This document shows, one piece after another, positions 6,939-25,793 of a stretch of DNA of 64,000 bases. This stretch comes from Babesia bovis T2Bo. Lineage: Eukaryota; Apicomplexa; Aconoidasida; Piroplasmida; Babesiidae. Numbering within the stretch: position 1 is the first letter of the stretch; each line of letters opens with the position of its first letter. Under the pieces are notes generated by a model, which ran no database searches, was not told the origin of the DNA, and saw only the letters and a program-made list of their open reading frames with translations. The position numbers were made by a program, and so were the translations under genes. Location of the stretch: positions 1,240,001 through 1,304,000 of the forward strand of contig NC_010574.1 in the NCBI RefSeq assembly GCF_000165395.2, in the 5' to 3' direction.

Positions 6939-9900
6939 ATGTGGCGCATAAATCGCAACTCCTACATACTGGTCAGCCGCGCCATTATGTAAAATCGCAG
7001 ACAGTTATCCAGGCCAAGGAACGATTAAGAGCTATATCGCCTTCTTCCAGGCAAGCGGCAATCAGGAGGATACTCGAAGAAGCCCCTGATAGGATAACTT
7101 GTAAGGAGTTCATTCGAAGTTTAGACGAAATATACACCGAATTATCGCAAGATGCGGGAATCAACGGAGATACTGCAGTACCGGCCGCAGAAATTGCGGA
7201 ACCCCTCTTATCAGCCATCGCACCTACAGGAAGGGACATAAACAGTGTAGCCGCATTGATATACGTAGTTGCCTACACATGCCACGAAGGATTTAGGACG
7301 TATACTGAACGCCGCTTGTTCCCCTACGTACTTGATGTTGACCTAGATGTTAGACAGTTTGCCAGACTGGGTTGTGCCAGGCTGTTGGTAATGGTACTAC
7401 TTAGCACAACTAATATATTTGTCGGGGCCCAGGGGCCACAATGCGAAAGAAGAGTAAACGTAGCTGCAGCAGTGGCTGCAGAACTGCTTGCACGTGATGA
7501 GGAAGCACCACTACCACCGAGAAAGGAAAAGAACGACGTATTTAACTATGTAGTCAACATGAAAATGGAAGCCAAGAACATGAAGAGACTCTTGAACAAA
7601 TCGCAGTGGGATGCATTGTGCACGGACCTGAGAATATATGCAGCATTTCCACCGCAAAAACTAATGAGTAAGTTTGTGAACAATCTTAAGCGTATTTGCG
7701 ACTATGTCGCTTTCAATAGCGAGACTGAATCCTTGGGGGACTACGCCACTCTGATTACCTCGACTTTCCTCAATAGTAGATTTCAAGTGGAGCTACTGCT
7801 CAATTTCATAGAGTCAAACTCGTCACACCACCATATACAACCCAAGCATACAAGACGAAAGGAGCTATTTGAACGGCTAATACCCATAAGATGCCACGAG
7901 TATATAAATACAGTTCTATGGGCATTCGACACTGATGTTCTTTGTATGCTTTTCTCGCTGGTACAGCAGAAGCACCAGGTTATACAATTTAAAACTATGA
8001 TGGAACAGTTGGTTAAAGATGGAAGCCAACCAGAAAATTGTTATTTATTGGCCAAAGCGATGATATATGCATTAACAGATTTGTGGATAAGAGATCATGA
8101 CCCGTTTGGAAACAGGGATGATATAGTAAAACTCAGGTTGGCTAACACAAACCCACTCTTCTGGTATACATATGAACTGTGCCTCCAACAATTCATTAGC
8201 AGTGAAGACCTGATAAATGAAATACGAAGTATAAGCGGGGGGTCTATACAAGGCAAGAGATCAAATGAACTATTCGAGTTCCTTGGTGAAATGGCTAAAT
8301 CACTACCGGGTGAGTATATCATCCTTGGTATCATGGAAACGATGCGATATGTACAGTACAACATACATGTAGTATCCTTTATGATTAATCTGTTCCAAGG
8401 AATCCTGATGGATGTATTCAAAGACACTAAGATGAACTTCAGCAAGGGATTGTTGGAGATTGTATGCTACTGCAGGCAGACCTTTGATTGGGGATTCATG
8501 ACAATGCTAATACATAGTGTGGATGCACTCATGGTACCGGAGGATGGTATTGCCAACAGAAATGACGTGGCAAAAGAAAAGCTTGCCGGTGGATTTATGG
8601 ACTACTTGCGTTGGAAGATGCAGCAGATTCGACAGTCTATCTCACAGGGTAACGTAACACCAAATGTGTTTATACCGAACTGCAATGTCATTGCCGAGAT
8701 ATTCTGCATACTCAATCATACAATAGGCCCATGTGACGAGCTGTTGGATATATTCCAGGCTTTTGTAAGTGAATACAAGGGACTTGGCCACTATAAGGTG
8801 CTGTTGATACCGCTCTACGATGCATTGAAAGCGAGAGCAAAAGGTGATACCCAACGCAGTCCCAAGGTACCCATCGGTTTCGATAGAGACCTTTACAGCT
8901 ACATGGTGCATAACGAAGATATTCAGTCTACCACGTCACATATAGTCGATATCATCTTCTCTTGCAAGCTACACCAAAGCGTGTTCGATGCTGTGGCGTC
9001 CCTGAATGCAGATAAAAATTCACTCAGGACACAAACTATCCTAGATGTACTTATGCGTAAGTACATCAACAGGCTTGTTATGGTACTTAACCTGTCGGTG
9101 CCAAACGACTTTTGCTTACATGTTAATAAAAACACAAGTGAGGAAACTATAGGTTTGGGCACACGTCTGGCTATGGTCGCCCAGTTTACCGGGAAGCTAC
9201 TGTCACTACACCTAATGACGGCACATTGCGACTCGGTATACATTATATTCAGGATCCTCATAGAAGCTATTCGAAGCACGCAGGTGTTCCTAATTGAGTT
9301 CGCAGTGGAGGCCTTCAGTGCCATGGGTAACCTCCTGGCATTCCCCGTGTTTGCCAAAGTATTTATCAACGAGGATGTTATCGCAAGGCTGTATCCACAG
9401 TTTGCATCTCACGTCAAAGCTGCCCTAGAGCGTATTGATGTATATATAGTCGAGGTTTGTAACAATGATTCCGGAGCTGTGGTATTCGAGAAACCACAGT
9501 GCCTCAAGGCATTCGATAGTAAGGCACGCGGTTCAAAGGGATTGATGATATTGAAGCAGAGTACAACGCTTCCATACGAGTTTGATCCTGACCACGAAGG
9601 TGCCATGATGCATCCAAATAATGCCAGTACAGTGTTCTCTATAGTCAACCTCGCAGCGAATATACAGTACAAACAGCTGCCACAGGATACTGTGTGGTAC
9701 CAGGATCAACTTACTATGGACCTCAGCAACCTAACATTGGATGACCTCCTGGGAACTCTGAAAGTAGAATTCGAGGCACCACCTAATGCCTTGGAAATCA
9801 TGTCAATCATGGAGATGACACTAAGTAACAAGACCTTCACTAATCACGTGGAACAGTTAGTTACCAAAGGATATGTGGATTGGCTTTTGTTCGTTATATA

Positions 9901-12900
9901 CAGATATGTCCTAATACGGGGATATACCTACTTCAGGGACTGCATTGTTTTCATGGCAACCCTTGGGGGCGCTCGCATGATGGATGCAATGGTCAAGTTT
10001 GCGGCATACTGCCTTAATGTTTTCCTAAAGTACCTCAGGGTATGCAGATCCAACCCAATCTATCGCAAGCTGCTAACAGTCAGCAGCGGGTGGATGGGCG
10101 CTATCACGCTTGGGCGTAACAAACCGTTGCTGACGAAACACCTGGACCTGAAGCACCTAATCCTGTACTCGTACCAGAATGGTTACCTAACAGTAATCAT
10201 ACCAGCAGTTTGCAAGCTCCTAATGAATGTCAAGTCGTCGAAGATATTCAGGTTACCGAACCCTTGGACAAGCTCGTTACTCAACCTGCTCGCCGATATC
10301 GCAACATCCAGTGGTCTCAAGTCAACATTGCAATTTGATCTATCGTTATTGTTCAGGAACCTTGAGCTTATACCCGGTCCAAGGTTAGTCAACGCCTTGG
10401 TTAAGGAAGTTCCCGTGTCCGATGTAGACCGTAGTCCGAAACTAGGAAGCAGTATATGGTCGACTTGCGCACCGCCTAACGCGCCAGGAGCTCAGATGAT
10501 GCCACCTGAATTCCAAATTCAGCCGGTTACCCAAGAGGTACGTGAACTACTGAAACGCAAGATCGTTCTGAACCCGAAGGTCTCCTGCCTAAATGCCAAG
10601 TGGCCTTGGATAGAGATGATACTTAATGCCATAGAGTCGTGTTACATGGAGTCATCAGAACTCATAAAGAAAACGATGTTTACGTGTATCACGACAACAA
10701 GGAATATAATGATCACTGACTTTAGCGGATGCAAGCGTGATGTCGTGGATAATAACCCGGAGATGCTCAAAATAAGCGCCACAGCAATGGCCAGTGGCCT
10801 TGCAACAAGTTTAATAATGGCAACTTCAAGGGATCAGTTATGTAGCCTAATGGCACTGAGACTCCATATGCAAATATTATCGGTCTTGTCAATGGAACCT
10901 GTACCAGGCCACTCGGCACTGACGAACAACCTCGAGCAGGTTAGCGGGTTCCTCGCCAAGGATAACCTCGGTCTGGTGTGTGCCTTAGTTGAACAGGCAA
11001 CGCTAGAGTTGATCACGGGATATGTTTCCGCGTCTATCAACGACTGGATAGCCAGTATTGGTAAGGAGCCGTATGCCAATGTTCCAACCGAACTTAGTAT
11101 CGCACTGCAATCGAATATGGGACTCGATACCTATAACCGCTTTGGAGCCCTTGTGCCCTTCGCCATGACGCGGTTACAGGCTGACAAGCACCAGGGGTCA
11201 CCACCACATGGATTTGGTATGCCAGGAGGTTATGGCATACCACAAGGTGGTATGATGAACGATTCGGTGTCAATGATGCATCACACGAAACCAAGACAAA
11301 ACGCCCCGGCATTCCGGCTACCTGACTTCATGGTTATACCACCTATTGATAACCTGCCAACTTCATTGATTGCCTGCAAGATCGAGGAGTTTGAGCATCG
11401 CGTAAAGGAAGCGGCGAAGCAGATACTCACGCACCCACCCACAGTGCCATTGCTAAACAGCAAGTACCTCTACAGTGCAGATTCTTCGACGTTGCTGTTA
11501 CTGTCCTGTTTACCCAGGAACCATGCTTTGTTTACGTTACTGTGGTCCATGGACTATATGCTCCAGCACGCTGCTAGCCAACCTGAATGCATCGAGGCCA
11601 TAGTTGGCAAGGTGCTAAAGACGTCCAAAGAAACTAGCAAGGGTCTGGACGTTGTGTCTATAGTCCAGGAAGTTGAGTACTGCCTGCTTGAGATGTTATC
11701 AGTGGGTACACCATTAGTCGTGGATATCATTACTAACGTTATGCCGTCACTAGGCCCAGCGCGTTTGTGCCAATTTGTTAGGCACGGGCTTATTAAGTTA
11801 CCCGCTCTAGATAGGTACATCAGCGGAGCTATGGATTTGGAAACCTGCTGCCGTACTATGCACAAGTTGGTCCTGGACACTCAATGGGTCACAGCAGCTG
11901 ATCTTCCCATCAGCATGAGTAAACTGGCTTCAATGGATCCCAATGCTACTGTACAAATACAAATCGGTAACAGTCCAGTATCCATAGAATTTGGTGAACT
12001 CCACAGAAGGCTGTCAACTCGCATCCCTATGATGCCCTTTTCAGGTGATTCCGATGGCCGTAATAACATGGGCCACGTACCCCCGAGCACTGAGCATACA
12101 CTTGGGTATGTACCACCAGGAGGTGGTTATCCAGTACAGGGTGCTGTGGGAAGACCTGGGAATAGGAATATCCCAGATGTGCGTTTGAGGACCATGCGTC
12201 AACTTGTGGTCGATAAGAGCTTGGTACGTAACAAGATGGTAATCAAGCTTTGTGAATTGCCAGGTAAAGAACGATATATTAAAATGTTCCAGGAGTTTTT
12301 GGTGAATGCCGACAAAGACTCCTCTCAATTGTACCAAAACTTTAATGAACACCCTCCAGATGCTTTCTTAACGTGTACCCTCTTATGCGCGCTACAGATG
12401 ACATTTGAACCCATGGGCACAGAAATGAAGAGTGACCGCCTTCCACAAACCTCGCATAACTCCCCAGTGTGGCACTACTGTGACGGTTGGTCTGTAATGG
12501 CAGCACGTCTGTCACGTAGTGAGACTTTTATGCTACACAAGGCGCTGCACGTTATGCTAGGTGTGATGCAGCATGGATTAGTACTCATCTGTTTCGAAAG
12601 GATACTATCTAATTTAATCAATGAACTGGAGTCGAATCCGCTCTTTTTAGTGTCGTTGGCTAACTTCTTGACGCTATGTGGCCCTTCTGAGATACCCGAA
12701 TTCGGAGAATACTGGATATCATTGGTAACACGAAAACAGTTTTTGCACCAGGTCATACAATCACCAAATGAGTGGCCGCTGTATCACCACCTGCTAGTAG
12801 AGGCGTTGACTTCATCGCATTCCAAGAACCCAAGTATAAGCTTTGTTCTAGTAACGCTGATGCAGAAGGTGCCCGAGTTTTTATGTGGATACTACCTCAG

Positions 12901-13645
12901 TCTGTGCGATGTAGTACCGCCACGTGCAATGCAGCTACGTAACCTGCTGACATGTGCCGTGCCACGCAGCTTCAAGCTTCCGAACCCAATTATTGTCACG
13001 GAGCATGTGGAAATCCCATCGCTAAACTTCACCAATCATATAATCACCGTGCTGAAGGCCAGTGGATTGAAGGTGGCTACTGATATGTTCATTCACGAAC
13101 CTAACGAAGGCTTGGTGCCAGTTATACTAAAGGAACTGCGATTGACTGACCCTAGCACATTTGACGTTGTGCTGGCGAACCACTATGTGTTGTATTTAGT
13201 CAATACACTACCCATAATCCGCAAGAAAATGCCAGGAGGACATCAGTATGCGCAAAACAGCTTACTCCTGCTCGAGAAGGTCATTACCAGCTGTATTTCA
13301 CAGGCAAGACATATGCTACTAAGCTGCATGACTAACCATTTGCGCTACCCCAATACCTCAACGTTCTCCTTTGTCTCCTTTATGATAAGGCTGTTTGTAA
13401 ACTGCGAGCCTCCGATGCAGGAACAGATAACTCTGGCGCTTCTAGAACGGTTATTAATAAGTAGACCGCACCCTTGGGGAGTTCTTCATCTACTGTTCCA
13501 GCTAGTGGAGAACCCCAAGTACGACTTCTGGAATCGTATTGAAGCAGCTCCAGAAGTGGAGAAGCATATTCGCCGCATCATCCAGGGGTGTTTAACCCCA
13601 AAGGCGCCGCCACAGCCTGGAGCCCCTAACGAGCATGTGCGTTAG
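6932..13645 (+). CDS. NOT1: NOT1, scaffold of the CCR4-NOT deadenylase complex
   Basis: A 2,237-residue single-exon protein of the length expected for NOT1 (2,000-2,400). NOT1 is the cytoplasmic platform that binds CAF1/CCR4 nucleases, NOT2/NOT3 and RNA-binding adaptors to shorten mRNA poly(A) tails. The C-terminus is the conserved NOT1 superfamily domain: TNHLRYPNTSTFSFVSFM followed by EQITLALLERLLISRPHPWG, near-identical in pattern to animal CNOT1. The middle contains long helical HEAT/MIF4G-type repeats without obvious insertions. A Gly/Met/Pro-rich linker near residues 1415-1450 (FGMPGGYGIPQGGMM) and a second near 1705-1745 separate the modules. ATG4 starts only 66 bases downstream on the same strand. 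Confidence 0.92.
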   Translation: MTHVAHKSQLLHTGQPRHYVKSQTVIQAKERLRAISPSSRQAAIRRILEEAPDRITCKEFIRSLDEIYTELSQDAGINGDTAVPAAEIAEPLLSAIAPTGRDINSVAALIYVVAYTCHEGFRTYTERRLFPYVLDVDLDVRQFARLGCARLLVMVLLSTTNIFVGAQGPQCERRVNVAAAVAAELLARDEEAPLPPRKEKNDVFNYVVNMKMEAKNMKRLLNKSQWDALCTDLRIYAAFPPQKLMSKFVNNLKRICDYVAFNSETESLGDYATLITSTFLNSRFQVELLLNFIESNSSHHHIQPKHTRRKELFERLIPIRCHEYINTVLWAFDTDVLCMLFSLVQQKHQVIQFKTMMEQLVKDGSQPENCYLLAKAMIYALTDLWIRDHDPFGNRDDIVKLRLANTNPLFWYTYELCLQQFISSEDLINEIRSISGGSIQGKRSNELFEFLGEMAKSLPGEYIILGIMETMRYVQYNIHVVSFMINLFQGILMDVFKDTKMNFSKGLLEIVCYCRQTFDWGFMTMLIHSVDALMVPEDGIANRNDVAKEKLAGGFMDYLRWKMQQIRQSISQGNVTPNVFIPNCNVIAEIFCILNHTIGPCDELLDIFQAFVSEYKGLGHYKVLLIPLYDALKARAKGDTQRSPKVPIGFDRDLYSYMVHNEDIQSTTSHIVDIIFSCKLHQSVFDAVASLNADKNSLRTQTILDVLMRKYINRLVMVLNLSVPNDFCLHVNKNTSEETIGLGTRLAMVAQFTGKLLSLHLMTAHCDSVYIIFRILIEAIRSTQVFLIEFAVEAFSAMGNLLAFPVFAKVFINEDVIARLYPQFASHVKAALERIDVYIVEVCNNDSGAVVFEKPQCLKAFDSKARGSKGLMILKQSTTLPYEFDPDHEGAMMHPNNASTVFSIVNLAANIQYKQLPQDTVWYQDQLTMDLSNLTLDDLLGTLKVEFEAPPNALEIMSIMEMTLSNKTFTNHVEQLVTKGYVDWLLFVIYRYVLIRGYTYFRDCIVFMATLGGARMMDAMVKFAAYCLNVFLKYLRVCRSNPIYRKLLTVSSGWMGAITLGRNKPLLTKHLDLKHLILYSYQNGYLTVIIPAVCKLLMNVKSSKIFRLPNPWTSSLLNLLADIATSSGLKSTLQFDLSLLFRNLELIPGPRLVNALVKEVPVSDVDRSPKLGSSIWSTCAPPNAPGAQMMPPEFQIQPVTQEVRELLKRKIVLNPKVSCLNAKWPWIEMILNAIESCYMESSELIKKTMFTCITTTRNIMITDFSGCKRDVVDNNPEMLKISATAMASGLATSLIMATSRDQLCSLMALRLHMQILSVLSMEPVPGHSALTNNLEQVSGFLAKDNLGLVCALVEQATLELITGYVSASINDWIASIGKEPYANVPTELSIALQSNMGLDTYNRFGALVPFAMTRLQADKHQGSPPHGFGMPGGYGIPQGGMMNDSVSMMHHTKPRQNAPAFRLPDFMVIPPIDNLPTSLIACKIEEFEHRVKEAAKQILTHPPTVPLLNSKYLYSADSSTLLLLSCLPRNHALFTLLWSMDYMLQHAASQPECIEAIVGKVLKTSKETSKGLDVVSIVQEVEYCLLEMLSVGTPLVVDIITNVMPSLGPARLCQFVRHGLIKLPALDRYISGAMDLETCCRTMHKLVLDTQWVTAADLPISMSKLASMDPNATVQIQIGNSPVSIEFGELHRRLSTRIPMMPFSGDSDGRNNMGHVPPSTEHTLGYVPPGGGYPVQGAVGRPGNRNIPDVRLRTMRQLVVDKSLVRNKMVIKLCELPGKERYIKMFQEFLVNADKDSSQLYQNFNEHPPDAFLTCTLLCALQMTFEPMGTEMKSDRLPQTSHNSPVWHYCDGWSVMAARLSRSETFMLHKALHVMLGVMQHGLVLICFERILSNLINELESNPLFLVSLANFLTLCGPSEIPEFGEYWISLVTRKQFLHQVIQSPNEWPLYHHLLVEALTSSHSKNPSISFVLVTLMQKVPEFLCGYYLSLCDVVPPRAMQLRNLLTCAVPRSFKLPNPIIVTEHVEIPSLNFTNHIITVLKASGLKVATDMFIHEPNEGLVPVILKELRLTDPSTFDVVLANHYVLYLVNTLPIIRKKMPGGHQYAQNSLLLLEKVITSCISQARHMLLSCMTNHLRYPNTSTFSFVSFMIRLFVNCEPPMQEQITLALLERLLISRPHPWGVLHLLFQLVENPKYDFWNRIEAAPEVEKHIRRIIQGCLTPKAPPQPGAPNEHVR

Positions 13646-14960: not shown

Positions 14961-17939
14961 ATGGCGCTTGAATCCGATATGGGTCCGCCAACAACGCCAG
15001 TGAAGTCAGAGGATGAGGCAGTTTACGATGATTCGTTGGCCGAAAAGGTCATGGATTTTTTCAGCGGAGGTCGTGTTATCACACGATCTGAACCCATGCA
15101 ATCAAGCAGGAGCTATAAAGAGCTTATATTACAAGAAATGAACTGGATGGCCTGTGATTACTACCACGAAAGAAGATGGAAGTGCCATGTAAATAAACAG
15201 TTGTCCATTGGAATCAAGGTAGCAATCATGGACAGAAAGAAGCTAAACAAGAACTGGGTTGCTAATGAGTGTAGTAATCACGTTAAAAGATTCTGGGTGG
15301 AATTCCTTAATGGGCCACAATACTGTTCACCCTTCTCTCAAGAACTTACCGAGTATTGCACCAACATTGCAAATAAGTACCTCAATTATACTCAAGCTGA
15401 TGTTGAAGAAGGTACTAAAGATTATGAAATGGGTCCTAGAGATCTAATAGCGATACCCGTCCCTTTAGTTCCACTACGGGACAGTTCCCCCGAACCTAAA
15501 GTCCCAATATCGAAAATTTCTGTTATTGATGCCGCAACGTTAAAGATGCAGTCTATGGGTGCGGAGTTTTACAGGCCTATGTTTAGACCACCAGATGAAG
15601 ATCTGGACGTGTTTACACTGCCGTTGATGGACCCAATCAAGGATGTTGATTTCAATTCATTTCTTGTACAGAATTTTTGCGTCAAACGATGTTCACATCT
15701 AAAAATCAGATCGCATATTAAACACGAAATCCGAATGCCAAAGATGCCCCTCTTAAGCAGGAAGTTTATTAGGGTGACTAATGATCCAAGTTGCTTGTCG
15801 ATTTCTCAGCGAGACTTCGACCTTCAGATAAAACCAAAACCGTTATTCCATGGCCTTATGGTTCGTACAAAGCTATGTTCATCGGATTTCGAACTTTTGG
15901 ATCCGTGGATGATTTCGGATTCAACATCATGGCCAATGATCGCTATATGTCTTACTTATCGGTCGAGTACAAGCGGTTTGCACCGACATGAATTTGGTGT
16001 GGATTACTGCCGCAAAGTTTTCCAGAACTTTAAGAGATTGCCGAGAGGTCTTGTAAATTCAAGCAGGCGTCTTTTAGGACCTAGACAAAGGAATGCAATA
16101 ACCACTTTTTTAGGTGCACCTCCTAGAAGACAGAAGTACGAACCACTCGTGCAGCTTTTTGATAGAGAAGACGATATAAAACCACAAACGAAAAGATCGC
16201 GCGTTTTCAATGTACAGGAGATGTTACACTGTTGCTTAGGTTCGACTAAGGATGAACCAACAATTAAGCGGAGATTTTCAATGAGCCTTGAAGAGATGTA
16301 CATGCCACAACTCAAGGACTCAATTTCTTATAGCAACAACTTGGCCCAAAGTAACCAAGATGTGGATTTGTATCGTGAAAATCAAGAAGTGGTAATTTCA
16401 TTGTCGTCTTATTCAGAAGATAATGATGATAATGTAGAGCCCAGTAGTGGTCTATTACCATTGGCGTCATCCCAAGGTTCGTCTTTCGAAAATATGGACG
16501 AAAATCTAGTTCGGTTTCCACTTTCTGATATTTCACTTAGTGGTACCACCGGATTGAATCTGAAATGTTTAAGGCGCAAAAGCATCACGGAGCAGCGTCG
16601 TGGTGCATCTAATACTAATGATCCTATCATATTTGAGAAGACAGACAGCGCTACTGTGGATTCAGAGACGGTTGTAATACCATCAAATGCACGGTTAGAG
16701 GTTGCCATCGCAACTGGTAACTTCAAACAGCGTCCGTGCTTTAGGAGTGACCGCAAAACTGACCCGTTACTACATATGCCAAATGTGCCATATGGCGAGT
16801 ACAGTAACCGCATGAGCAAACAGCTTAGGGTTGGTTTTTTAGGTATACCGGCAAAAATGTTCGCGCACTCTCTTTTCTATTCAGGCAGGTTTTCAAAGAA
16901 CAACCGCGTAAGAAGGGTGGCTGTGGCCATCGCTACCAGTACTAAGATAGTCTTACCACAACCAAACCTCATCCATGCTAGGCTATTTGAACATGATGCA
17001 ATGTCGATTTTTGCGAGGTTCAGAAACCAAAATTGGCAAAGGACAGTCAATCACACAACGGGGGCGCACGGTGAACAATTGCTCAAGAAATATGCTAACG
17101 AGATAATAAACTCAAGTGACAAGAGGGGTAACACCCATATGGAGATCAAACCCGTCGACATACTAGCAGCATTTGTTAACATGAAGCTGCAAAAGAATGA
17201 AACTATGAAGCAGAGCGTGTTCCTGCCTAACAAAATTTTGGCAAATACCATTGAGCAGGTAGTTGCGTCTGCGCCAATTCCGCAGAACACACAAACACCA
17301 GTAGCGCAGCAACGTAACCCGCAGCCTGTGCGTCACACTCCAATGCAGGGACATGGAATATCACCGAGGGCCACTGTTCAGCCTAATATGATGCCACAAA
17401 CTGTGCCCGTGCAACAAATGCAAAATACAATGTTACAAATGCATCCTCCACAGATGCAGCAGCAGCAACAACCGCCAATGGCACCGCAACCAAGCCCAAA
17501 AGGTCACATGGTTCACCCTTCAATGATCCCCGGTGGTATGCAACAAGGACACATGACCCCGGGTCCAATGGGCGCAATCAAGAAGGCACCTGCACAGTTG
17601 CCACCAGGATCATTACCTCCAGCTCATATGCCAGGTGGAGGAATGCACCCAACGCATATGGTACCTGGTAAGGCCCAGCCAGGTCCTATGCAGGGAATGC
17701 CACCACCAATGCAGTTGAAGCGCCGCTACCCCGTGGAACCACAAGGCAAACGTAGACCGAGGGGCCCTTACGATCAGGTGTATCCCCAACAAATGCATCA
17801 ACAGTCATACAGATATAGGAATATGCCGGATCATCATATGATGCGCATACCTATCTACCCTATGGCAATGTACACTAAGCAAGCGCCATTCCCAAAGTCG
17901 CACGATGACCCTTATAGAGGGTCCCATGTGCAAAGATAA
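14961..17939 (+). CDS. HSA-domain protein, EAF1/VID21-like (possible NuA4/TIP60 scaffold)
   Basis: A 992-residue protein. Residues about 50-90 read SYKELILQEMNWMACDYYHERRWK, a good match to the HSA (helicase/SANT-associated) pattern that binds actin-related proteins. Around residues 310-355 a SANT-like segment follows (DPWMISDSTSWPMIAICL, then CRKVFQNF). HSA followed by SANT without a helicase is the EAF1/VID21 arrangement, the platform of the NuA4 histone acetyltransferase. The C-terminal 240 residues are Met/Gln/Pro-rich and surely disordered, as in the yeast protein. The start is the first ATG and sits 7 bases after a GC-rich stem-loop. The alternative is a different HSA-containing chromatin subunit; no SNF2 helicase motifs are present in this ORF. 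Confidence 0.55.
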   Translation: MALESDMGPPTTPVKSEDEAVYDDSLAEKVMDFFSGGRVITRSEPMQSSRSYKELILQEMNWMACDYYHERRWKCHVNKQLSIGIKVAIMDRKKLNKNWVANECSNHVKRFWVEFLNGPQYCSPFSQELTEYCTNIANKYLNYTQADVEEGTKDYEMGPRDLIAIPVPLVPLRDSSPEPKVPISKISVIDAATLKMQSMGAEFYRPMFRPPDEDLDVFTLPLMDPIKDVDFNSFLVQNFCVKRCSHLKIRSHIKHEIRMPKMPLLSRKFIRVTNDPSCLSISQRDFDLQIKPKPLFHGLMVRTKLCSSDFELLDPWMISDSTSWPMIAICLTYRSSTSGLHRHEFGVDYCRKVFQNFKRLPRGLVNSSRRLLGPRQRNAITTFLGAPPRRQKYEPLVQLFDREDDIKPQTKRSRVFNVQEMLHCCLGSTKDEPTIKRRFSMSLEEMYMPQLKDSISYSNNLAQSNQDVDLYRENQEVVISLSSYSEDNDDNVEPSSGLLPLASSQGSSFENMDENLVRFPLSDISLSGTTGLNLKCLRRKSITEQRRGASNTNDPIIFEKTDSATVDSETVVIPSNARLEVAIATGNFKQRPCFRSDRKTDPLLHMPNVPYGEYSNRMSKQLRVGFLGIPAKMFAHSLFYSGRFSKNNRVRRVAVAIATSTKIVLPQPNLIHARLFEHDAMSIFARFRNQNWQRTVNHTTGAHGEQLLKKYANEIINSSDKRGNTHMEIKPVDILAAFVNMKLQKNETMKQSVFLPNKILANTIEQVVASAPIPQNTQTPVAQQRNPQPVRHTPMQGHGISPRATVQPNMMPQTVPVQQMQNTMLQMHPPQMQQQQQPPMAPQPSPKGHMVHPSMIPGGMQQGHMTPGPMGAIKKAPAQLPPGSLPPAHMPGGGMHPTHMVPGKAQPGPMQGMPPPMQLKRRYPVEPQGKRRPRGPYDQVYPQQMHQQSYRYRNMPDHHMMRIPIYPMAMYTKQAPFPKSHDDPYRGSHVQR

Positions 17940-17974
17940 AAAAAACTGCTCATATAATATTAAAAATATTGGAA

Positions 17975-19852
17975 TTAAACATTGTTATCAGCTGTATCGG
18001 GTGAAAATGACACCGACTTGCTAGATTTTGTACCTGCATTCTTAGAAGCTTCCAGCATCTGGCTGAACAGATGGCAACATTGCGAATGTGCCTTCAAAGA
18101 AGCATCCTTAATACGCTCGCAAGCTGCACCAAAAACTGATTTAAATGACCCAGCAGGCCATCCAAGTAACAGAACTGTAGATGAGCTTGCAATTACCGTA
18201 TTACTATAAGCCGGCATTGAATTAATGACTTCTTCAGTACCCAATAGCGATGTTGTAAAAAGGGTGATAGCTGTATTATCACGTGATCCTGGCATACATA
18301 GATCAACTGAACCGTCAAAGATTATATAGAACCAGTCTGGTTTATCACCTTGACGATATATTGTTTCGTGCATCTTACGCTTGCGTACAACGCTAGCGCA
18401 CGCTATAAGATGAATGTCATTATCATCCAGACCTTCCAGACAGGAAACCTTAGAAAGGAAGGTGGCAATTACTGCCACTCGTTTAATACGTGTTTCAACC
18501 ATTGGCACAACAGTTTCGTGGAACTTGCGACGATCAATGCGACCTAATAGTGCTTCATCCGTATCGCTAACGGTGTATGTCATGGTTGCAACTTGTTTAT
18601 TCACCAAACTGTCGAAATCCAACCATGTACCAACTTCAACCTCTGTTTTGTAGGATTCCACGAAAATATAAGTAGTGTATGACGACTCCAAAAGACCAGA
18701 TAACAGTAGATACAGGGGAAAATCCTTGTCACCCTGAGCAATAACAACAGAACCACTCTTTTGACGCGACTCCGTTAATAGAGTTGCAATATATTGCTTT
18801 TGTACCAAAGATAATGATTTATAGTACGGATGGGCAGTAATTGCCGGTTTAATCACTAAATCCATATATCGCTTTATGGTATTACCCTCGTCAGCCAGGC
18901 TGCAGGGCTCTTCCCAGGTATTGTCTACCAATGAAACGTCTACACCGTAATCGAGAACATCAAAGACCGAACTCTCATGATCCTTTAGCTCTTTCCTGAA
19001 ACTATCGTAATCGTCGGTTGTCCAATATCCTAATATCTGGTTATAACTCGATGAAGCAACAGATTCCTTTGCAACAGCGTCCTCGAAAGTCCAGTCACCG
19101 CACATCAGCTTCAACATTGTCATTACAGTAACATAGCCATTATCACATACGTCTAACTTCTTGAATAGGTCCCGAGCTGTGGCTTCGGGTACACCAATGT
19201 TGGTGCACATGGCAACGAAATCTGAATCGGAACAAGTCGTGCTCATCTTTAAAGGACCACACTGTTTTACAAATGCTAAACGTGCGCTTCCATATGCGTG
19301 CTGTAACCTGTCGTGTAACCCCTTGGTGGTAGTTATGGTTTCGCCGCTGCTGTGATATAGAGACGACATTGTTATTGCATCGCTGGAAGCATCCTTTAAC
19401 ATGTCGAAAAGGTATGGCATATCAGAATTCTCGAATGATGCGATACAAAGGTTTTCAACAAACATGAAAAATGAATCGCGATCTACTGCACCGCAATTGT
19501 CAATATCCATGCACTGGAAAGCTGCGCCCAATGATGTGAATTTAGTCTTTAGTGTTGCTATCATTAGGTACTTCATAGCAAGCAGTTCGTCATCGGTGTA
19601 ATTCCTGGGTGAACTACAGCTCTCATCATCCAATGCAGAGTCAGAAAAGGTAGAAAGCGGCTCAGATAGGTCGGATGAATCCGATGAATCACTGAAATAG
19701 CTGTCAGCTGGTTTAACTTCGCTGTGCAATATTGATTGTGCGGTCTCGCTTGCCTTTATCCCTCTGGTGAATATACCAGTTGGCACGCGCTTCGTATTGC
19801 GAACTACATTGGCAATAGGTTGGTTATTATGTGATGTAGAGTTTGATCCCAT
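17975..19852 (-). CDS. EF-hand-like and cyclic-nucleotide-binding-like protein (probably the 3' part of the upstream ORF)
   Basis: This 625-residue ORF has a Ser/Asp-rich N-terminus. Two EF-hand-like helices-loops follow with loops at 116-127 (DIDNCGAVDRDS) and 234-245 (DVCDNGYVTVMT), then two cyclic-nucleotide-binding-type beta rolls at about 350-450 and 465-590 (KMHETIYRQGDKPDWFYIIF). Both EF loops lack the position-12 Glu. Both phosphate-binding cassettes lack the canonical Glu/Arg pair, for example LLGTEEVINSMPAYSNTV. Sensing of calcium or cNMP by these copies is therefore doubtful. The reading frame stays open for 62 codons upstream of the ATG until a single TAG, beyond which the neighbouring ORF continues in the same frame. 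There is no kinase domain, so it is not PKG or a standard PKA regulatory subunit. Function unknown. Confidence 0.75.
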   Translation of the reverse strand: MGSNSTSHNNQPIANVVRNTKRVPTGIFTRGIKASETAQSILHSEVKPADSYFSDSSDSSDLSEPLSTFSDSALDDESCSSPRNYTDDELLAMKYLMIATLKTKFTSLGAAFQCMDIDNCGAVDRDSFFMFVENLCIASFENSDMPYLFDMLKDASSDAITMSSLYHSSGETITTTKGLHDRLQHAYGSARLAFVKQCGPLKMSTTCSDSDFVAMCTNIGVPEATARDLFKKLDVCDNGYVTVMTMLKLMCGDWTFEDAVAKESVASSSYNQILGYWTTDDYDSFRKELKDHESSVFDVLDYGVDVSLVDNTWEEPCSLADEGNTIKRYMDLVIKPAITAHPYYKSLSLVQKQYIATLLTESRQKSGSVVIAQGDKDFPLYLLLSGLLESSYTTYIFVESYKTEVEVGTWLDFDSLVNKQVATMTYTVSDTDEALLGRIDRRKFHETVVPMVETRIKRVAVIATFLSKVSCLEGLDDNDIHLIACASVVRKRKMHETIYRQGDKPDWFYIIFDGSVDLCMPGSRDNTAITLFTTSLLGTEEVINSMPAYSNTVIASSSTVLLLGWPAGSFKSVFGAACERIKDASLKAHSQCCHLFSQMLEASKNAGTKSSKSVSFSPDTADNNV

Positions 19853-20038
19853 GTTTTTATCCGTCTTTATAGTCGCATCTATAGCCTCGGCACAACTTTC
19901 TTTATCAGTTTCTACAATCCCACTACAGGCATCACTATCGGTGATGATGCTATCATCTCTTAATGTACCACTAGAATCTGAATCAAATGATGTAATGGAG
20001 CGTGATCCATCATTTTGGTTATGCGATAAAGCAATCTC

Positions 20039-22777
20039 CTATATAGTATTGCTGGTAAACGAATCACTGTCGTCTAAATCACTGGTTTCAGTTGTCACCA
20101 TAGTATCAGAATCCAAATCATTTTGTTGAATACTGCTTGCAACGCTAATAGATGCTGCAGCAGGAGCGTCGCTTCTATCATTCGATTGAATAGATGCTTC
20201 TTTAGATGACGACATAATATCACTATCATCTTCCATGCTTTTCGTTTCAATACTGTCATTCGGAGTCTCTACAAAAGACATCTTAGATCCAGTTAAAGCG
20301 GATACATAAGGTGTATCGGTGCTAACAGAAACAGGAGATCCATCTTCAGAATCCAGTTCACCTTCAGAGGAGTCATTAATAAATGAACCTGCTATAGAGC
20401 TTTGCTGAGTTAGACTAATAGTTGCATTGACCGAATGGGTTATACGCTCAAAACGCGCTGATAAACTGTCTACGCCCTGCAGAAGCTCAAGCTCCTGCAA
20501 TTTGTCCCGGAAGTATTGCTCCAGAAAATGACGTACATGTTCCAGTACATTTTTACATCGCTCTCTCAATATATCACCGTCTAAAATGAGCAATAAAGTG
20601 TCACCACTAGCAACCAAATGACTTGATGCCATGGCATCAACTACTTGGCTATCAAAACAGTCTACACCACCGATAAATGATTTGGGGTCTATAACAGCAA
20701 TCTTTTTAGATCCGTGTAGCTTTACATCGAGGGCACCTTTATAAACAACACACAAATCACGTAACTCTAGAATGGATTTCACAAGGATCTCACCGTCAGA
20801 TAGTTCCCTGTATCTGAAGAGTTTGGCTACATTCTGCTGCTTGGCAAGTACGTTGACAATAGGTATACCGCTTATGAACTGAGACACATCTGGGAAATCT
20901 TTCTTAACAGTCGTAACTTCAGCGTTAGTGTCGTCATTTTTGTTGGAAGAGTACGAAGCCAAAGCACGTTCTCTAAATTTGGGCAGCAAGTCTTTCAGAA
21001 GCTTCAAGAAATTTGATCCTGACATTGTCTGCACCGTCACATGGCTCTCTGCAATAATGTAAGATGTACAGGCCTGCTTGTTAATCAGCGATAACTCCCC
21101 AAAATAGTCAGTATTAAGGTACTTGCGCAGCAATCGATTCGGTTTGTTCACCCCCTCGTAAGAATACGCAGATACAGTTCCCGATGCTAAAATGTAGAAA
21201 TAACGTGGTTTCTCACCAGCTAGAATAATAGCTGCTCTAGGCGGATATGACTGCAGCTTGAAGTAAGGAAGTAGGCTACGTAACCTTTCTTTTGGTAGAT
21301 CCTTTAAAATTGGGACACTTTCCAACAACAACATTAAAGCATCTAGAATCTGTCGTTTCTGCTCCGTCAAAGGCTGAATTGAAGCGCCAGGAAGTACGAC
21401 TGTAGAGTTTTCATACTCAAGAGAAGGAGTTTCCGAATAACCACTGATGCTTTCAGTATCCGATATAGCTGATGGAGGCTTTGAGATATGTCTCGCCTCT
21501 TCAACATTATCTTGAGTGCTTGACCTTGATGTAGAATGAATAGAATGTTCTACGGAAACTACGTTTGTGCCTAACGATAGCGGAGGCTCAACATCGTCAT
21601 TTACTATCATATCCGTTTCACTTTCATCCACATTTGTGGCGACAGACGTTACAGGTTGTGCCACTGGAGCATCATCTTCATGCGAGACTATAGGGCTAAA
21701 TGCCTCCTTGTCATCCGGAGTCAAACTTGTTTCACTTGATATGCTATCCGACCACGACATTGCATCGGGTGCTAGTTTGTTATCATCCAGTTCTGCATCC
21801 GGCGGACTATGTGAAGAAACGGTTGATTCATTTTCATGTAACGAGGTAACATCTTGGCACGATCGGTCGCTAAAATCGGAATCCGAAACTCTGCTGGGTG
21901 AAACGTCATTGATTGATGAAGAAATACGAATTGCGATATTTTGCTCAAGAACACTTGATATTGAGTCTGGCGATAATGGCGTTGAATCACTAGGAGGGAC
22001 CTCTGGTTCAGACAATGGTATAGTATCACTGCTTTGTAGTGACTCATTTCGAATAGATGGTTGTTCTTCCATAACATCATCGGAGATATCAAGTTCATGG
22101 TTGCGTTCACCAATATCCGATAATGTATGTGAATCTTCTGCGTCTGATTGAGGAGCCGATGAAAGTAGATTGTCGCTGAACGCTTCATCTTGATTTTCAA
22201 ATGTCGATGGCGCAACAACTGTATCTAGGTTTTCTGCTTCTGAGGCTGCTAATCCTTCCTCTTTGCCGACTGACGGATTTGAAGGCAACTTGTTATTATA
22301 CTCTACTCCGCCTGCAGTTATCGACGTTTTTTCATGTGCCAACGGTGTCGCAGCAGCTTCTTTAGTTTCTGATAGAGGTGCTGCAGATGGCGCCATAGGC
22401 AAGGTGTCCGTAGACATTACATCGTCTGGTGATTTACTTCTACTCTTACTTGTTTCGTGTTGTCTCCTGGAATCCTTGTTGGCTCGGGGCTTGCGTTTGC
22501 TGTCTGCCGGAACGGGAACCAATATAGTTTTCGTCTGCTTGCTTTGTTGAATAGGCACTGGAGGTGCCTTCGTCCTATTTTGCTTAAGTAAGTCCAAAAT
22601 ATCACTATATAGAGATATTAGCTTTTGCCTCCTAGCAGATTCCCGTGATCCGTTTGATTCAGCAGGCGCGGCGCCGATATTGTCATTAAAAATAAGTGGC
22701 TCATTGTTAATAGACAACCTGGAGAGCTCAACCTCCCTTTCACAACCTATGGCGTTGCGTGAACTGCTTAATTGCAT
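20039..22777 (-). CDS. Ser/Asp-rich protein with degenerate cyclic-nucleotide-binding domains (probably 5' part of one gene with the next ORF)
   Basis: The frame is open from 22924, but the first ATG is at 22777 (MQLSSSRN), giving 912 residues; the non-ATG extension hints at a spliced 5' exon. About 450 residues are low-complexity Ser/Asp/Glu-rich. A CNB-type fold follows with a glycine-rich turn (RYFYILASGTVSAYS) and cassette YFGELSLINKQACTSYI near residue 559, where the phosphate-contacting Arg is replaced. A second, weaker CNB-like unit is near 640-740 (VVYKGALDVKLHGSKKI). The C-terminus is again acidic and Ser-rich. Translation stops at a lone TAG (20041-20039), after which the same frame runs on into the 625-residue EF-hand/CNB ORF. 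Best read as part of one four-CNB protein. It is not assignable to PKA-R, PKG or Epac on what is visible. Confidence 0.7.
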   Translation of the reverse strand: MQLSSSRNAIGCEREVELSRLSINNEPLIFNDNIGAAPAESNGSRESARRQKLISLYSDILDLLKQNRTKAPPVPIQQSKQTKTILVPVPADSKRKPRANKDSRRQHETSKSRSKSPDDVMSTDTLPMAPSAAPLSETKEAAATPLAHEKTSITAGGVEYNNKLPSNPSVGKEEGLAASEAENLDTVVAPSTFENQDEAFSDNLLSSAPQSDAEDSHTLSDIGERNHELDISDDVMEEQPSIRNESLQSSDTIPLSEPEVPPSDSTPLSPDSISSVLEQNIAIRISSSINDVSPSRVSDSDFSDRSCQDVTSLHENESTVSSHSPPDAELDDNKLAPDAMSWSDSISSETSLTPDDKEAFSPIVSHEDDAPVAQPVTSVATNVDESETDMIVNDDVEPPLSLGTNVVSVEHSIHSTSRSSTQDNVEEARHISKPPSAISDTESISGYSETPSLEYENSTVVLPGASIQPLTEQKRQILDALMLLLESVPILKDLPKERLRSLLPYFKLQSYPPRAAIILAGEKPRYFYILASGTVSAYSYEGVNKPNRLLRKYLNTDYFGELSLINKQACTSYIIAESHVTVQTMSGSNFLKLLKDLLPKFRERALASYSSNKNDDTNAEVTTVKKDFPDVSQFISGIPIVNVLAKQQNVAKLFRYRELSDGEILVKSILELRDLCVVYKGALDVKLHGSKKIAVIDPKSFIGGVDCFDSQVVDAMASSHLVASGDTLLLILDGDILRERCKNVLEHVRHFLEQYFRDKLQELELLQGVDSLSARFERITHSVNATISLTQQSSIAGSFINDSSEGELDSEDGSPVSVSTDTPYVSALTGSKMSFVETPNDSIETKSMEDDSDIMSSSKEASIQSNDRSDAPAAASISVASSIQQNDLDSDTMVTTETSDLDDSDSFTSNTI

Positions 22778-23053
22778 GCGTGCCGTTTCTACAATAGCCT
22801 GTTCCACATGTGGGCGGCCCAAATGCAACCCTGATACGTCGATCCCTGGCAATGGACGTGTCTGTACGATAATGTGCAATGCATACAACCTTAGCTTATG
22901 GAAAAGAATAACAACACATAACAAGTCCTAGTTCTACTCTATTATAAATGCGCAAAAGTTAAACGTTCCAAAGTCAATACAGACAGGTTGTAATACCGTC
23001 GTACAACGACAATATTACCACGGGTTAAAGTAATATGGCAGAATGGGCACACT

Positions 23054-23931
23054 TCACATATCATCGTGAATGTCAGTGCTCACCGTTTGGTTGGTTAAAT
23101 CGGGGTGCCGAAGACGGTGTTCTAACAGCTCCTTCTCAAGATCTGCAATACGGGCTACGAAGCTATCAATTCCTGCGGGCAAATGCAAAATCATCGTTTA
23201 CAACATACGGTTTTTGTCATCTGCGATTCTTATCCTTGCAAGCTTGAGTAAATCAAAGGCCTCCTTTGATAAAGCTTCACGTTTATCGGAGCGCGACTTA
23301 ACGGCATCGCTATCTTTCAAACAGCTAACATCCCGTGTCTCCCCTACCAAATCGTCTAATTGCTCCCTTAAACGATGTTCGATATCCTGGATTTTGTGCT
23401 TCCATGACATAGACACTGCATATTCCATAGAAAGTCGGCTTTCCAACTCTCTATTGCGATCCTATGAAATCATGAAACATACGTAATCTCAAAGCGTATA
23501 CACACCTCTAAGATTGTCAGCTGTCGGTATAAAGCAGTCGCATTGGTCTCAGCATGAAAGTCTGATCCGTACACCCTTGATGAGCCATTTTGAAGCTTTG
23601 ACAATACACCTTGAAGCCTGCTGCTCAAAAACGGATCCGAAGCTATTTTTGAGTGTAAATCAGCAAGTTCGGTACGTAGGTCGTCATTCCTATGATGGGT
23701 TAGTAAAAGCATGTGTGTACGAATGCATACAAAGAGTATTATGATAAAGGCATTGTGCAAGCATTCGTTTTATACTACGGCTTACTTTAACTGTAACGCA
23801 TCTATTGTGCCCAGCAATTGCGATATTCGCGATTCGTAGACTTGCTCCTTGCAAGGATGTAACTCGTCCAGTACAGTGGTATGAAGCTGCGCCAACTTAG
23901 CGATACATGCACATTTGCTGCCTGGAGGCAT
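23054..23931 (-). CDS. Coiled-coil protein of unknown function (4 exons)
   Basis: Four exons join with correct phase: 23931-23786, 23689-23506, 23461-23209 and 23172-23054, giving 233 residues. Introns are 96, 44 and 36 bp, all GT-AG. It begins MPPGSKCACIAKLAQLH. Long amphipathic, charged helices follow (RNRELESRLSMEYAVSMS, then QDIEHRLREQLDDLV, IADLEKELLEHRLR), indicating an extended coiled coil, with no domain I recognise. The clean phase at all three junctions and the consistent coiled-coil character on both sides of each are the support for a real gene. A cytoskeletal, kinetochore or vesicle-tether role would be guesswork. Confidence 0.7.
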
Positions 23932-24149
23932 CGCGTACAAACTACATTGTATATTATTGTTTCCAGGCGTCTCAGTTGTCGAAGCTGATTGTGCGAATAA
24001 AGGGGGATAATAACAGATGGGGAGAAGGGTACGCCACGAATCCTACTGCCGCGCGATACGCCATCGCAGATCTAAATAATGCGCGTCGTTTCGAAAAATG
24101 AAGATAATTAATTTTTATTGTAGACGGACATCGTTTTAAGATACATAGT

Positions 24150-25793
24150 ATGGCGATCGCGCATCCGGAACTACTCTGGATAGTTGTGACATCAGGGCTA
24201 GTGGCTGTATTTCTGGCTATGGCCATTGGTGCCAACGATGTTGCTAACGCGTTGTCAACATCTATCGGAAGCGGATCGCTTAAGCTCCGAACGGCGCTAA
24301 TTGTAGCTTTTGTTTTCGAAATTTTTGGAGCGCTGCTGCTCGGAGGTTCGGTGTCAGACGCTATTCGCAAAAAGGTGTTGAATTTTGACGCTTTCAACGA
24401 TGCTCCAAGGGATCTGGCGGTTGGTATGATGACCTCGAGTCTCAGTGCTACAATATGGCTAATGTTTGCTACGTGGTTCGGTATACCAGTATCTACGACA
24501 CATTCGATTATTGGAGCACTGGCAGGCTTTGGTGTTGCGTCAGGTCGTGTTGATAGTGTTCGTTGGATAAAGATGTTCTATATCCTTCTATCATGGATCA
24601 TCGTTCCAATTATTGCTGTGGTTGTCAGCTGCACGTTGTACATCTTATTGCAGGAAGCCATGTTAAAGAGGAAACATTCATGTACCATTTTGATGTACAC
24701 GCAACCGTTTTTGATTGCTTGTACAACGTTGCCATTGGTAATTTTGTTGGCTTTTGAAAACCCACTGATGAAGGTTAATACCACGGAAGGTGCAATATAC
24801 AACTATGTCCAGTGGTTCAATGCCTCAGCGGGAAATAAAGCAATTGTAATATTTTCAATGTCATTATTGTTAGTATTAATTCTAACTCCTTCGTCATACA
24901 TCCCTGGTGTTAACCGCATTAAAAATGGTTGGTCGTTTCTGTCGACGCAGCAAATTGCAACCAAGGATATTGACAACAACTGTATGTCAAAAATTAAGTG
25001 CTTCTTCGCAAGGGAAAGGTCACAATCGATGCAATTAAACATTGGTAGAAGCCAACTTGAGGTAATAGACATGTCAAACGTATCTTCATCCAAGGTTACT
25101 CACGAACGTTTGTTGCAGAGTGCAATGGATATGGAAGACACTGCTAGAGTTATTGAACAGGTGAAGGATACTGAAAATCACAAAACCGAAGTTCTTTTTT
25201 CGGCTATGCAAATCATTGGTGCTATAACCGTCATTATCTCACACAGTGCCAATGATACAGCTAATGCAGTGGCGCCATTTGCTACAGTCCTATTGTTGTA
25301 TCTTTACGGTGTAGAGGAGAGCAAAGCTTTCACCCCTTGGTATATTTTACTTTTAGGTGGTCTATGCATGTCATTCGGTCTCGCGTTTTTTGGTTACCAA
25401 GTTATCAAAAATGTCGGGATGAAATTGACCAGGGTCACACCATCAAGGGGATACACCATTGACACAACAGCTGGAAATATAGTTTTAATAGTCAGTTATC
25501 TGGGCATACCGCTTAGTTCCACTCACGCCAGTGTTTCTAGCATTCTTGGAGTTGGACTTGTGGAAAACCTCAAGACACAAAATTTTAATGAAGTACAGGT
25601 GCTTGAACTTGAGGGTCCCAAGCCCACTCGGTGGACGAAATTTCCCATCTTAAATCGTATATCTACGAAATACGTCAACTTTAAGTTATACAGCAAGATC
25701 TTTGTGACTTGGATCACAACGATATTTGCTAGCGGCATTATGTCTGCCACTTTGTATGTGGTGGTCATATTCTGCTGCAAAATTTTTTCCTGA
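24150..25793 (+). CDS. PiT-family inorganic phosphate transporter
   Basis: A 547-residue integral membrane protein. The two PiT signatures, from internal duplication, are present: GANDVANALSTSIGSGSL at residues 27-44 and SHSANDTANAVAPFATV near 363-380. About ten to twelve hydrophobic segments flank a central hydrophilic loop of about 95 residues (about 260-355), the usual PiT arrangement. It should import inorganic phosphate coupled to sodium, or possibly protons, at the parasite plasma membrane, like the single PiT of Plasmodium. Single exon. The start is the first ATG of the frame and leaves a short N-terminus before helix 1. Confidence 0.93.
   Translation: MAIAHPELLWIVVTSGLVAVFLAMAIGANDVANALSTSIGSGSLKLRTALIVAFVFEIFGALLLGGSVSDAIRKKVLNFDAFNDAPRDLAVGMMTSSLSATIWLMFATWFGIPVSTTHSIIGALAGFGVASGRVDSVRWIKMFYILLSWIIVPIIAVVVSCTLYILLQEAMLKRKHSCTILMYTQPFLIACTTLPLVILLAFENPLMKVNTTEGAIYNYVQWFNASAGNKAIVIFSMSLLLVLILTPSSYIPGVNRIKNGWSFLSTQQIATKDIDNNCMSKIKCFFARERSQSMQLNIGRSQLEVIDMSNVSSSKVTHERLLQSAMDMEDTARVIEQVKDTENHKTEVLFSAMQIIGAITVIISHSANDTANAVAPFATVLLLYLYGVEESKAFTPWYILLLGGLCMSFGLAFFGYQVIKNVGMKLTRVTPSRGYTIDTTAGNIVLIVSYLGIPLSSTHASVSSILGVGLVENLKTQNFNEVQVLELEGPKPTRWTKFPILNRISTKYVNFKLYSKIFVTWITTIFASGIMSATLYVVVIFCCKIFS

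What the first reader, a model, noticed from the sequence alone, without database searches (positions are those of the whole stretch)
17975..22777. One in-frame TAG divides what looks like a single four-CNB, EF-hand protein
The upstream 912-residue ORF stops at TAG (20041-20039). The next 62 codons, to the ATG of the downstream 625-residue ORF at 19852, are open in exactly the same frame and have the same acidic Ser/Asp composition. A chance open run of 62 codons in this AT-rich genome is unlikely. A 60 bp phase-0 GT-AG segment (20098-20039, donor GTGACA, acceptor ATATAG) would remove the TAG and fuse the two into about 1,580 residues. Other options are a recent nonsense mutation, programmed readthrough, or a sequencing error.
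Basis: partly seen in the sequence, partly recalled or inferred. Interest (0 to 1): 0.75.

Follow-up and report, generated by a model that had tools for sequence, protein, structure and literature searches.

The report
Stop codon splitting apical ring protein
In this Babesia genome one in-frame stop codon cuts a single gene for a parasite-tip (apical complex) protein in two; whether the stop is a real gene-breaking mutation, like those that arise in the matching malaria gene in culture, or is spliced out, can be tested directly.

Summary
In detail: two minus-strand ORFs (22777-20039, 19852-17975) share one frame, separated by a single TAG (20041-20039) and 62 open codons that score as coding.

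They are halves of one gene. Six relatives (five named Babesia species, one unnamed) each have one polypeptide (1,371-1,917 aa) collinear with both halves. Both halves match, in order, one Toxoplasma chain, PCR12/TGME49_219070 (preconoidal ring P2), orthologue of Plasmodium CBP-O ("EPAC").

How the TAG is handled is unsettled. The proposed 60-nt intron has a weak donor, a strong acceptor and a typical total splice score, but its body reads as acidic/Ser linker coding sequence. My first choice, about even odds, is a recent premature stop in the sequenced line. Precedent: the P. falciparum orthologue is reported as the gene with most independent nonsense mutants in laboratory-adapted lines. Splicing of the coding-derived 60 nt is the main rival; two stable proteins, sequence error and readthrough are less likely.

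The gene is a known kind; a cross-genus parallel in losing it would be new and is directly testable.

The parts
23786..23931 (-). exon 1 (start ATG 23931-23929), conserved N-terminal region
   Evidence: tblastn of orthologues P0006, P0008, P0009 from their residue 1, P0007 from residue 6; sequence
23690..23785 (-). intron 1, 96 nt, GTAAGC..CATAG
   Evidence: gap in orthologue alignments, GT-AG, frame kept
23506..23689 (-). exon 2
   Evidence: tblastn of orthologues
23462..23505 (-). intron 2, 44 nt, GTGTGT..CATAG
23209..23461 (-). exon 3 (SWKHK..LLKLA region)
   Evidence: tblastn of orthologues P0006-P0009, 45-64% identity over exons 3-4
23173..23208 (-). intron 3, 36 nt, GTATGT..CGCAG
   Evidence: in-frame TAA in genome, gap in orthologues
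23084..23172 (-). exon 4
22862..23083 (-). intron 4, about 222 nt, GTGAGC..TACAG (3' end uncertain)
   Evidence: frame and splice signals only; sequence not conserved at the join
20042..22861 (-). exon 5, part before the TAG: disordered Ser/Asp-rich stretch, two CNB-like domains (about ORF1 residues 484-611 and 627-760), start of linker
   Evidence: Pfam PF00027, 2 stretches; Toxoplasma PCR12 1576-1717 best stretch; orthologues
20039..20041 (-). in-frame TAG
20039..20098 (-). 60-nt in-frame GT-AG segment that would remove the TAG if spliced; 19 codons of linker-like coding composition ending in TAG
19853..20038 (-). 62-codon open bridge, coding-like
17975..19852 (-). downstream 625-aa ORF: EF-hand-like helical domain, degenerate CNB, C-terminal CNB

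Best explanation
One gene (window 23931-17975, minus strand) is the piroplasm orthologue of Toxoplasma PCR12 (TGME49_219070) and Plasmodium CBP-O/'EPAC', a large protein of the parasite's apical (preconoidal) rings with several divergent cyclic-nucleotide-binding domains and EF-hand-like modules. The TAG lies inside a disordered acidic linker, after 1,164 codons of about 1,851, and is not an ancestral gene boundary. Most likely it is a recent premature stop, so the sequenced line makes at best a truncated protein with the N-terminal region and two CNBs, without the EF-hand and two C-terminal CNB domains. By analogy with Plasmodium, the intact protein would be dispensable in blood stages (so a stop can be kept or selected in culture) and needed in the vector stage. 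Shown: single-gene architecture in relatives, orthology to PCR12, coding character of the bridge. Inferred: that the stop is real, recent and inactivating, and why it persists.
For: Both halves descend from one coding sequence (my probability 0.93): relatives P0002, P0003, P0006-P0009 are single proteins collinear with both halves; P0002 gives one genomic match spanning both ORFs with 1 TAG inside. Toxoplasma PCR12 is matched in order by the N-terminal region (via P0009: 198-455), ORF1 (1576-1717) and the downstream piece (2105-2588). The bridge scores as coding. Premature stop: the 19 codons before the TAG score 0.22 bits/codon in frame, near the coding median (46.7% of coding windows lower or equal; 2.45% of non-ORF windows reach it; 2 of 40 putative short introns reach it); base composition is linker-like; 15 of 19 residues are S/T/D/E/N, reached by 2 of 33,742 non-ORF reads. 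No other stop in the 687 downstream codons, so the lesion would be young. Precedent: the P. falciparum orthologue had five nonsense alleles among 11 laboratory-adapted genomes (from seven isolates; two not fixed) and none in 2,483 uncultured samples; four of 17 clones carried new loss-of-function variants in it; a disrupted line grew normally in blood stages.
Against: The 60-nt segment has a good summed splice score, matched at 27 of 1,500 control codons and 6 of 2,207 in-frame NAG codons. No fused B. bovis protein was listed although the 912-aa ORF stands for 5 member sequences; if some of these are other isolates, the stop is not confined to one line (they cannot be inspected here). ORF2 shows no clear extra loss of constraint over ORF1: 36 of 180 versus 17 of 102 otherwise invariant columns changed. 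In P. falciparum too, most cultured isolates stayed free of such mutants after up to 7 months. The culture origin of the sequenced DNA rests on one passing remark in a paper and on my identification of the strain from recall.
Confidence: 0.48

Rival explanations
1. The TAG is removed by splicing of the 60-nt in-frame segment 20098-20039. The segment comes from coding linker sequence (an exon-derived intron, like the 'exitrons' of plants, a name I recall). Its last three bases, TAG, supply the acceptor. The product is about 1,832 residues.
For: GT-AG, phase 0, length divisible by 3; acceptor score at or above 29 of 31 training introns; total near the median of the training set; rare among controls (27 of 1,500; 6 of 2,207). 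The first, less strict intron script also accepted it, though it was in its own training set. The gene has four other introns of 36-222 nt.
Against: Donor GTGACA weak: 4 of 31 training donors score as low, 23 of 31 have G at +5. Body in-frame score reached by 2 of 40 putative short introns; base composition like the flanking linker, not like introns. With segments up to 250 nt, 213 of 1,500 control codons do as well. The training introns are predicted, not from RNA.
Confidence: 0.28
2. Two polypeptides are made stably in this species: the N-terminal half ends at the TAG and the downstream half starts at ATG 19852 (or earlier), from its own transcript or by reinitiation, and both act together at the apex.
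For: Both halves are intact and changed at similar rates. No fused B. bovis protein was listed.
Against: The 186-nt gap is coding-like in the same frame, which a promoter/5'UTR would not need. The six relatives found are single chains; would also have listed separate halves of about 530-1,680 aa carrying the first CNBs and listed none but the window's own, whereas the length limits (about 923-2,936 aa) would hide short halves. The next 5' boundary with a divergent neighbour is at 23931/24150, not at the TAG.
Confidence: 0.12
3. Programmed readthrough of the TAG makes some full-length protein.
For: Same frame and intact downstream coding.
Against: The bases after the TAG (GAGATT) do not fit readthrough contexts that I recall. 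Of 75 long ORFs no other has a same-frame extension above 82 codons, so TAG is not generally read as sense. A suppressor tRNA was not looked for.
Confidence: 0.05
4. Base-calling or assembly error at the TAG; the true gene is uninterrupted.
For: A single-site error would suffice; the rest of the frame is intact.
Against: The 912-aa ORF stands for 5 member sequences and no fused version was listed; not a homopolymer site.
Confidence: 0.07

Closest known systems
Toxoplasma gondii PCR12 (TGME49_219070), PDB 9YA0 chain MA
   Same: Collinear homology in the N-terminal region, the middle CNB block, the EF-hand-like domain and the C-terminal CNB block. Located at the conoid canopy / preconoidal ring P2 (PMC7951837, PMC12819142, passages seen).
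   Different: The Toxoplasma protein is 2,720 aa (paper table) or 2,736 aa (PDB chain), with a further EF-like unit and CNB at about 955-1536 and no break; [quoted passage not shown]
Plasmodium CBP-O / 'EPAC' (PBANKA_1025300, PF3D7_1417400)
   Same: Stated orthologue of TGME49_219070 (PMC7951837 table passage, PMC12422582 passages); N-terminal half without recognised domains, consecutive CNBs, degenerate CNBX, terminal CNB; premature stops recur in cultured P. falciparum (PMC5259787, PMC10272863, PMC7595149 passages). PMC6950926 calls it a putative pseudogene that accumulates stops in laboratory strains.
   Different: Five CNBs, of which CNB3 was shown to bind cAMP and cGMP; in this window neither ORF has the FGE..R phosphate-binding pattern. 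No Plasmodium sequence was aligned here.
Mammalian EPAC (RapGEF3/4)
   Same: CNB domains only.
   Different: No DEP, REM, RA or CDC25 domain in the Pfam scans of the two ORFs and of 5 of the 6 relatives (P0006 not scanned).

Membership tests
PCR12 / CBP-O family | Best and order-preserving match of the protein to PCR12 | tested here: met
   to 9ya0_MA: ORF1 1.6e-54, downstream piece 3.6e-45, relative P0009 3.1e-100; next PDB hits 5.1e-11, 1.9e-08 and 4.3e-10
PCR12 / CBP-O family | N-terminal region upstream of the CNBs | tested here: met
   exons 1-4 found by orthologue tblastn; P0009 4-264 to PCR12 198-455, 8.7e-16
PCR12 / CBP-O family | All domains on one polypeptide | tested here: inconclusive
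   met in six of six relatives found; interrupted by the TAG in this genome
PCR12 / CBP-O family | Cyclic-nucleotide binding residues (phosphate-binding cassette Glu/Arg) | tested here: not met
   no FGE..R-[ATSG] pattern in either ORF; B. ovis, B. ovata and B. bigemina have it in the first CNB with a shorter spacing than PCR12; a pattern search, not a binding test
PCR12 / CBP-O family | Apical (preconoidal) location | not testable with these tools
   needs tagging
EPAC (Rap guanine exchange factor) | CDC25/REM/RA/DEP domains | tested here: not met
   none in Pfam scans
Spliceosomal intron of this genome (20098-20039) | GT-AG with summed site score of known introns | tested here: met
   12.52 versus leave-one-out median 12.65 of 31
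Spliceosomal intron of this genome (20098-20039) | Non-coding body | tested here: not met
   in-frame score 0.22, reached by 2 of 40 putative short introns; S/T/D/E/N 15 of 19
Culture-selected nonsense alleles as in P. falciparum EPAC | Premature stop in an otherwise intact orthologue | tested here: met
   (unless the TAG is spliced out)
Culture-selected nonsense alleles as in P. falciparum EPAC | Absent from uncultured isolates, rises in culture | not testable with these tools
   no isolate sequences held

The most novel reading that the evidence does not exclude
The same apical-ring cyclic-nucleotide-binding gene that repeatedly acquires premature stops in cultured Plasmodium falciparum has also been broken in a Babesia reference line. 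Loss of this protein would then be a shared outcome of blood-stage propagation in two distant apicomplexan genera, with the protein needed only in the vector-invasive stage.
Probability: 0.3. Interest if true: 0.75.

Novelty: new member of a known kind. Interest (0 to 1): 0.5.

Why it matters
Piroplasms are usually described as having lost the conoid (PMC7951837, passage), yet full-length-type genes for a preconoidal ring protein are present here and in at least five named Babesia species. The database names seen call them CNB-domain or PKA-regulatory-chain proteins; PMC7951837 surveyed B. bovis in a figure that I could not see, so the orthology may already be recorded there. The split ORFs and the 5' exons suggest that a 912-aa gene model is wrong. 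If the TAG is a real inactivating stop, a reference strain would lack a protein that P. berghei needs to infect its vector, which bears on tick-transmission work, and it would be a second-genus case of a known culture-associated loss. If the TAG is spliced out, it is a small coding-derived intron that rescues a stop. Reads across about 250 bases decide between the two.

Tried and rejected
The first intron-finding script (89 accepted of 157 groups, the 60-nt candidate among them and in its training) included antisense frames of this gene and was dropped. The second, with candidates spanning the TAG excluded, gave 109 putative introns from 591 groups; those of 30-48 nt plus this gene's four introns (31 in all) were used. 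Longer ones were left out as probably contaminated, by my judgement. Positional homology of the 60-nt peptide or the bridge to the linkers of 6 relatives: none convincing for either (best 18 and 13 of 500 shuffles as high), so alignment cannot say whether relatives encode that segment. Branch-point motif CTRAY: uninformative (4 of 40 short introns; 10% of random coding; absent from the candidate). Relative rates: the B. bovis branch is longer than the B. ovis branch in both halves (0.47 v 0.17; 0.55 v 0.22), but B. gibsoni and B. caballi branches are similarly long (0.51 and 0.56; 0.47 and 0.34), so nothing marks B. bovis out; no control gene was available. ORF2 fold: EF-like domain confident (10-residue means 71-92, residues 81-260), CNBs weaker, mean pLDDT 57; the best PDB matches are PKG/PKA CNB domains with TM-scores of 0.16-0.21 by query length. 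The first protein search listed only the window's own ORF; its words came from the first 500 residues, mostly disordered. Hits P0004 and P0005 were not pursued. Literature on this gene in Babesia: listings showed nothing on a split (20 of 58, 20 of 38 and 20 of 3,165 papers shown); two RNA-seq papers had no 'cyclic nucleotide' in the main text, supplements not seen. PMC4412288 had nothing on the Plasmodium gene in the passages seen.

Full report
What is there. The window is G000:C2:1240001-1304000 of an 8.23-Mb assembly in 8 contigs, the contig being 1,729,419 bp. From size and relatives I take it to be Babesia bovis, probably strain T2Bo chromosome 2 (species and strain from recall, not from a call).

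More than chance. In 264 kb of the same chromosome, 75 long ORFs (at least 250 codons) were collected. The stop-codon frequency of non-ORF DNA gives about 0.025 for 62 open codons, so openness alone is weak, and 3 of 75 ORFs (this one included) have a same-frame run of 62 or more after the stop. But this run is 687 codons, the next longest 82. A phase-specific Markov model trained on 73 other ORFs puts the 62-codon bridge at 0.30 bits/codon (74th percentile of 2,000 coding windows; 0.2% of 2,000 non-ORF windows reach it). The non-ORF class still holds unrecognised exons, so it is not a pure background.

One gene. Sequence comparison with the PDB gives one outstanding match for both halves, chain MA of 9YA0, Toxoplasma PCR12 (TGME49_219070): ORF1 residues 470-611 to 1576-1717, and the downstream piece to 2105-2588, in order. 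Protein searches found B. ovis (1,678 aa), B. ovata (1,917), B. bigemina (1,903), B. gibsoni (1,826), B. caballi (1,905) and one whose species was not shown (1,371), all single chains, as gene models of unknown curation. The length limits of those searches matter: one search admitted about 530-1,680 aa and so could have shown separate N-terminal halves, about 923-2,936 aa and could not. The other two hits (P0004, P0005; 2e-5 and 5e-4) were not pursued. The B. ovis protein matches this genome once, across both ORFs, with 1 TAG inside. A search with ORF2 found one place in the genome (a lower bound by the tool's own account).

Missed 5' exons. Orthologues P0006-P0009 match the minus strand from their N-terminus, 23931 to 23084, in four exons with introns of 96, 44, 36 and about 222 nt. 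The exons add up to 672 nt, in frame with exon 5, which makes 1,164 codons before the TAG and 687 after. This N-terminal region is homologous to PCR12 198-455 (via P0009, 8.7e-16). The start at 22777 is therefore very probably internal. The divergent phosphate transporter ORF starts at 24150, about 220 bp away.

What the protein is. Toxoplasma 219070 lies at the conoid canopy and is subunit PCR12 of preconoidal ring P2; its CNBs are not resolved (PMC7951837 and PMC12819142, passages). Its P. berghei orthologue CBP-O is apical and needed for ookinete invasion of the mosquito, and CNB3 binds cAMP and cGMP (PMC12422582, abstract, passages and section 9). In this Babesia protein the EF-hand-like domain models well, but neither of the two loops found keeps an acidic residue at position 12, and neither ORF has the FGE..R pattern of cyclic-nucleotide binding; three relatives keep an Arg in the first CNB at a shorter spacing. 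I infer a scaffold or divergent sensor at the apical rings rather than a canonical cAMP/cGMP switch.

The TAG. For the 60-nt intron: summed splice score 12.52, against a leave-one-out median of 12.65 for 31 training introns; only 27 of 1,500 control codons have as good a segment of at most 90 nt, and 6 of 2,207 in-frame NAG codons; with segments up to 250 nt it is 213 of 1,500. Against it: the donor is weak, the body is coding-like (2 of 40 putative short introns as high), base composition is like the linker, and 15 of 19 residues are S/T/D/E/N. That last level is reached by 2 of 33,742 non-ORF reads, by 8 of 1,682 linker 19-mers of the six relatives and by 1 of 538 19-mers of this gene's own disordered parts. 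So the segment is most likely of coding origin. Either it became spliceable, or the TAG is a fresh stop. Alignment could not decide, since linkers do not align.

Why I lean to a premature stop. The P. falciparum orthologue had five nonsense alleles among 11 laboratory-adapted genomes (from seven isolates; two alleles not fixed) and none in 2,483 uncultured samples (PMC5259787, abstract and passages). [quoted passage not shown]; also PMC7595149, passages, and PMC6950926, one passage). A disrupted line grows normally in blood stages (PMC6530879, passages). One paper notes that B. bovis genomics drew on in vitro culture, and that a long-cultured B. bovis line lost tick transmission (PMC8867610, abstract and passages); this gene is not mentioned in the passages seen. 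Against: the database's 912-aa ORF stands for 5 member sequences and no fused B. bovis protein was listed, which would fit a stop fixed in the species, hence splicing or two products.

Constraint. In regions of 298 and 485 ungapped columns, B. bovis changed 17 of 102 (ORF1) and 36 of 180 (ORF2) columns that are invariant in the other five named Babesia; B. ovis changed 5 of 90 and 9 of 153, B. gibsoni 16 of 101 and 43 of 187, B. caballi 20 of 105 and 15 of 159, B. ovata 1 of 86 and 3 of 147, B. bigemina 0 of 85 and 1 of 145. B. bovis is faster than B. ovis in both halves, but not faster than every relative, and the two halves differ little. With few relatives and no control gene, this neither supports nor excludes a long-standing loss of the downstream half.

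Verdict. Both halves from one coding sequence: 0.93. Handling of the TAG: premature stop 0.48 (as the full best explanation), splicing 0.28, two stable products 0.12, sequence error 0.07, readthrough 0.05. The held-literature searches (capped listings for 11, 22, 36 and 64) listed no report of this Babesia split.

Noticed in passing
23932-24149: Short divergent intergenic region (218 bp) between this gene's likely 5' end and the phosphate transporter (PHO4) ORF 24150-25793; a possible shared promoter.
   Followed up: no
17940-17974: The convergent plus-strand ORF 14961-17939 (992 aa, DWNN match below cut-off) ends only 35 bp from the stop of this gene.
   Followed up: no
P0002 (B. ovis protein): The B. 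ovis gene model lacks the N-terminal region that four other Babesia models have; possibly the same annotation error as a start at 22777 here.
   Followed up: partly
window 19852-17978, EF-hand loops; P0003 residue 898: The unnamed relative P0003 keeps one canonical EF-hand loop; in the loops found in this window and the five named Babesia species position 12 is not acidic.
   Followed up: partly
ORF1 residues 472-773 and ORF2 residues 94-580: The B. bovis branch is about 2.6 times the B. ovis branch in both halves of this gene, though similar to those of B. gibsoni and B. caballi.
   Followed up: partly
6932-13645: Uninterrupted 2,237-aa ORF with CCR4-Not scaffold (Not1) domains.
   Followed up: no
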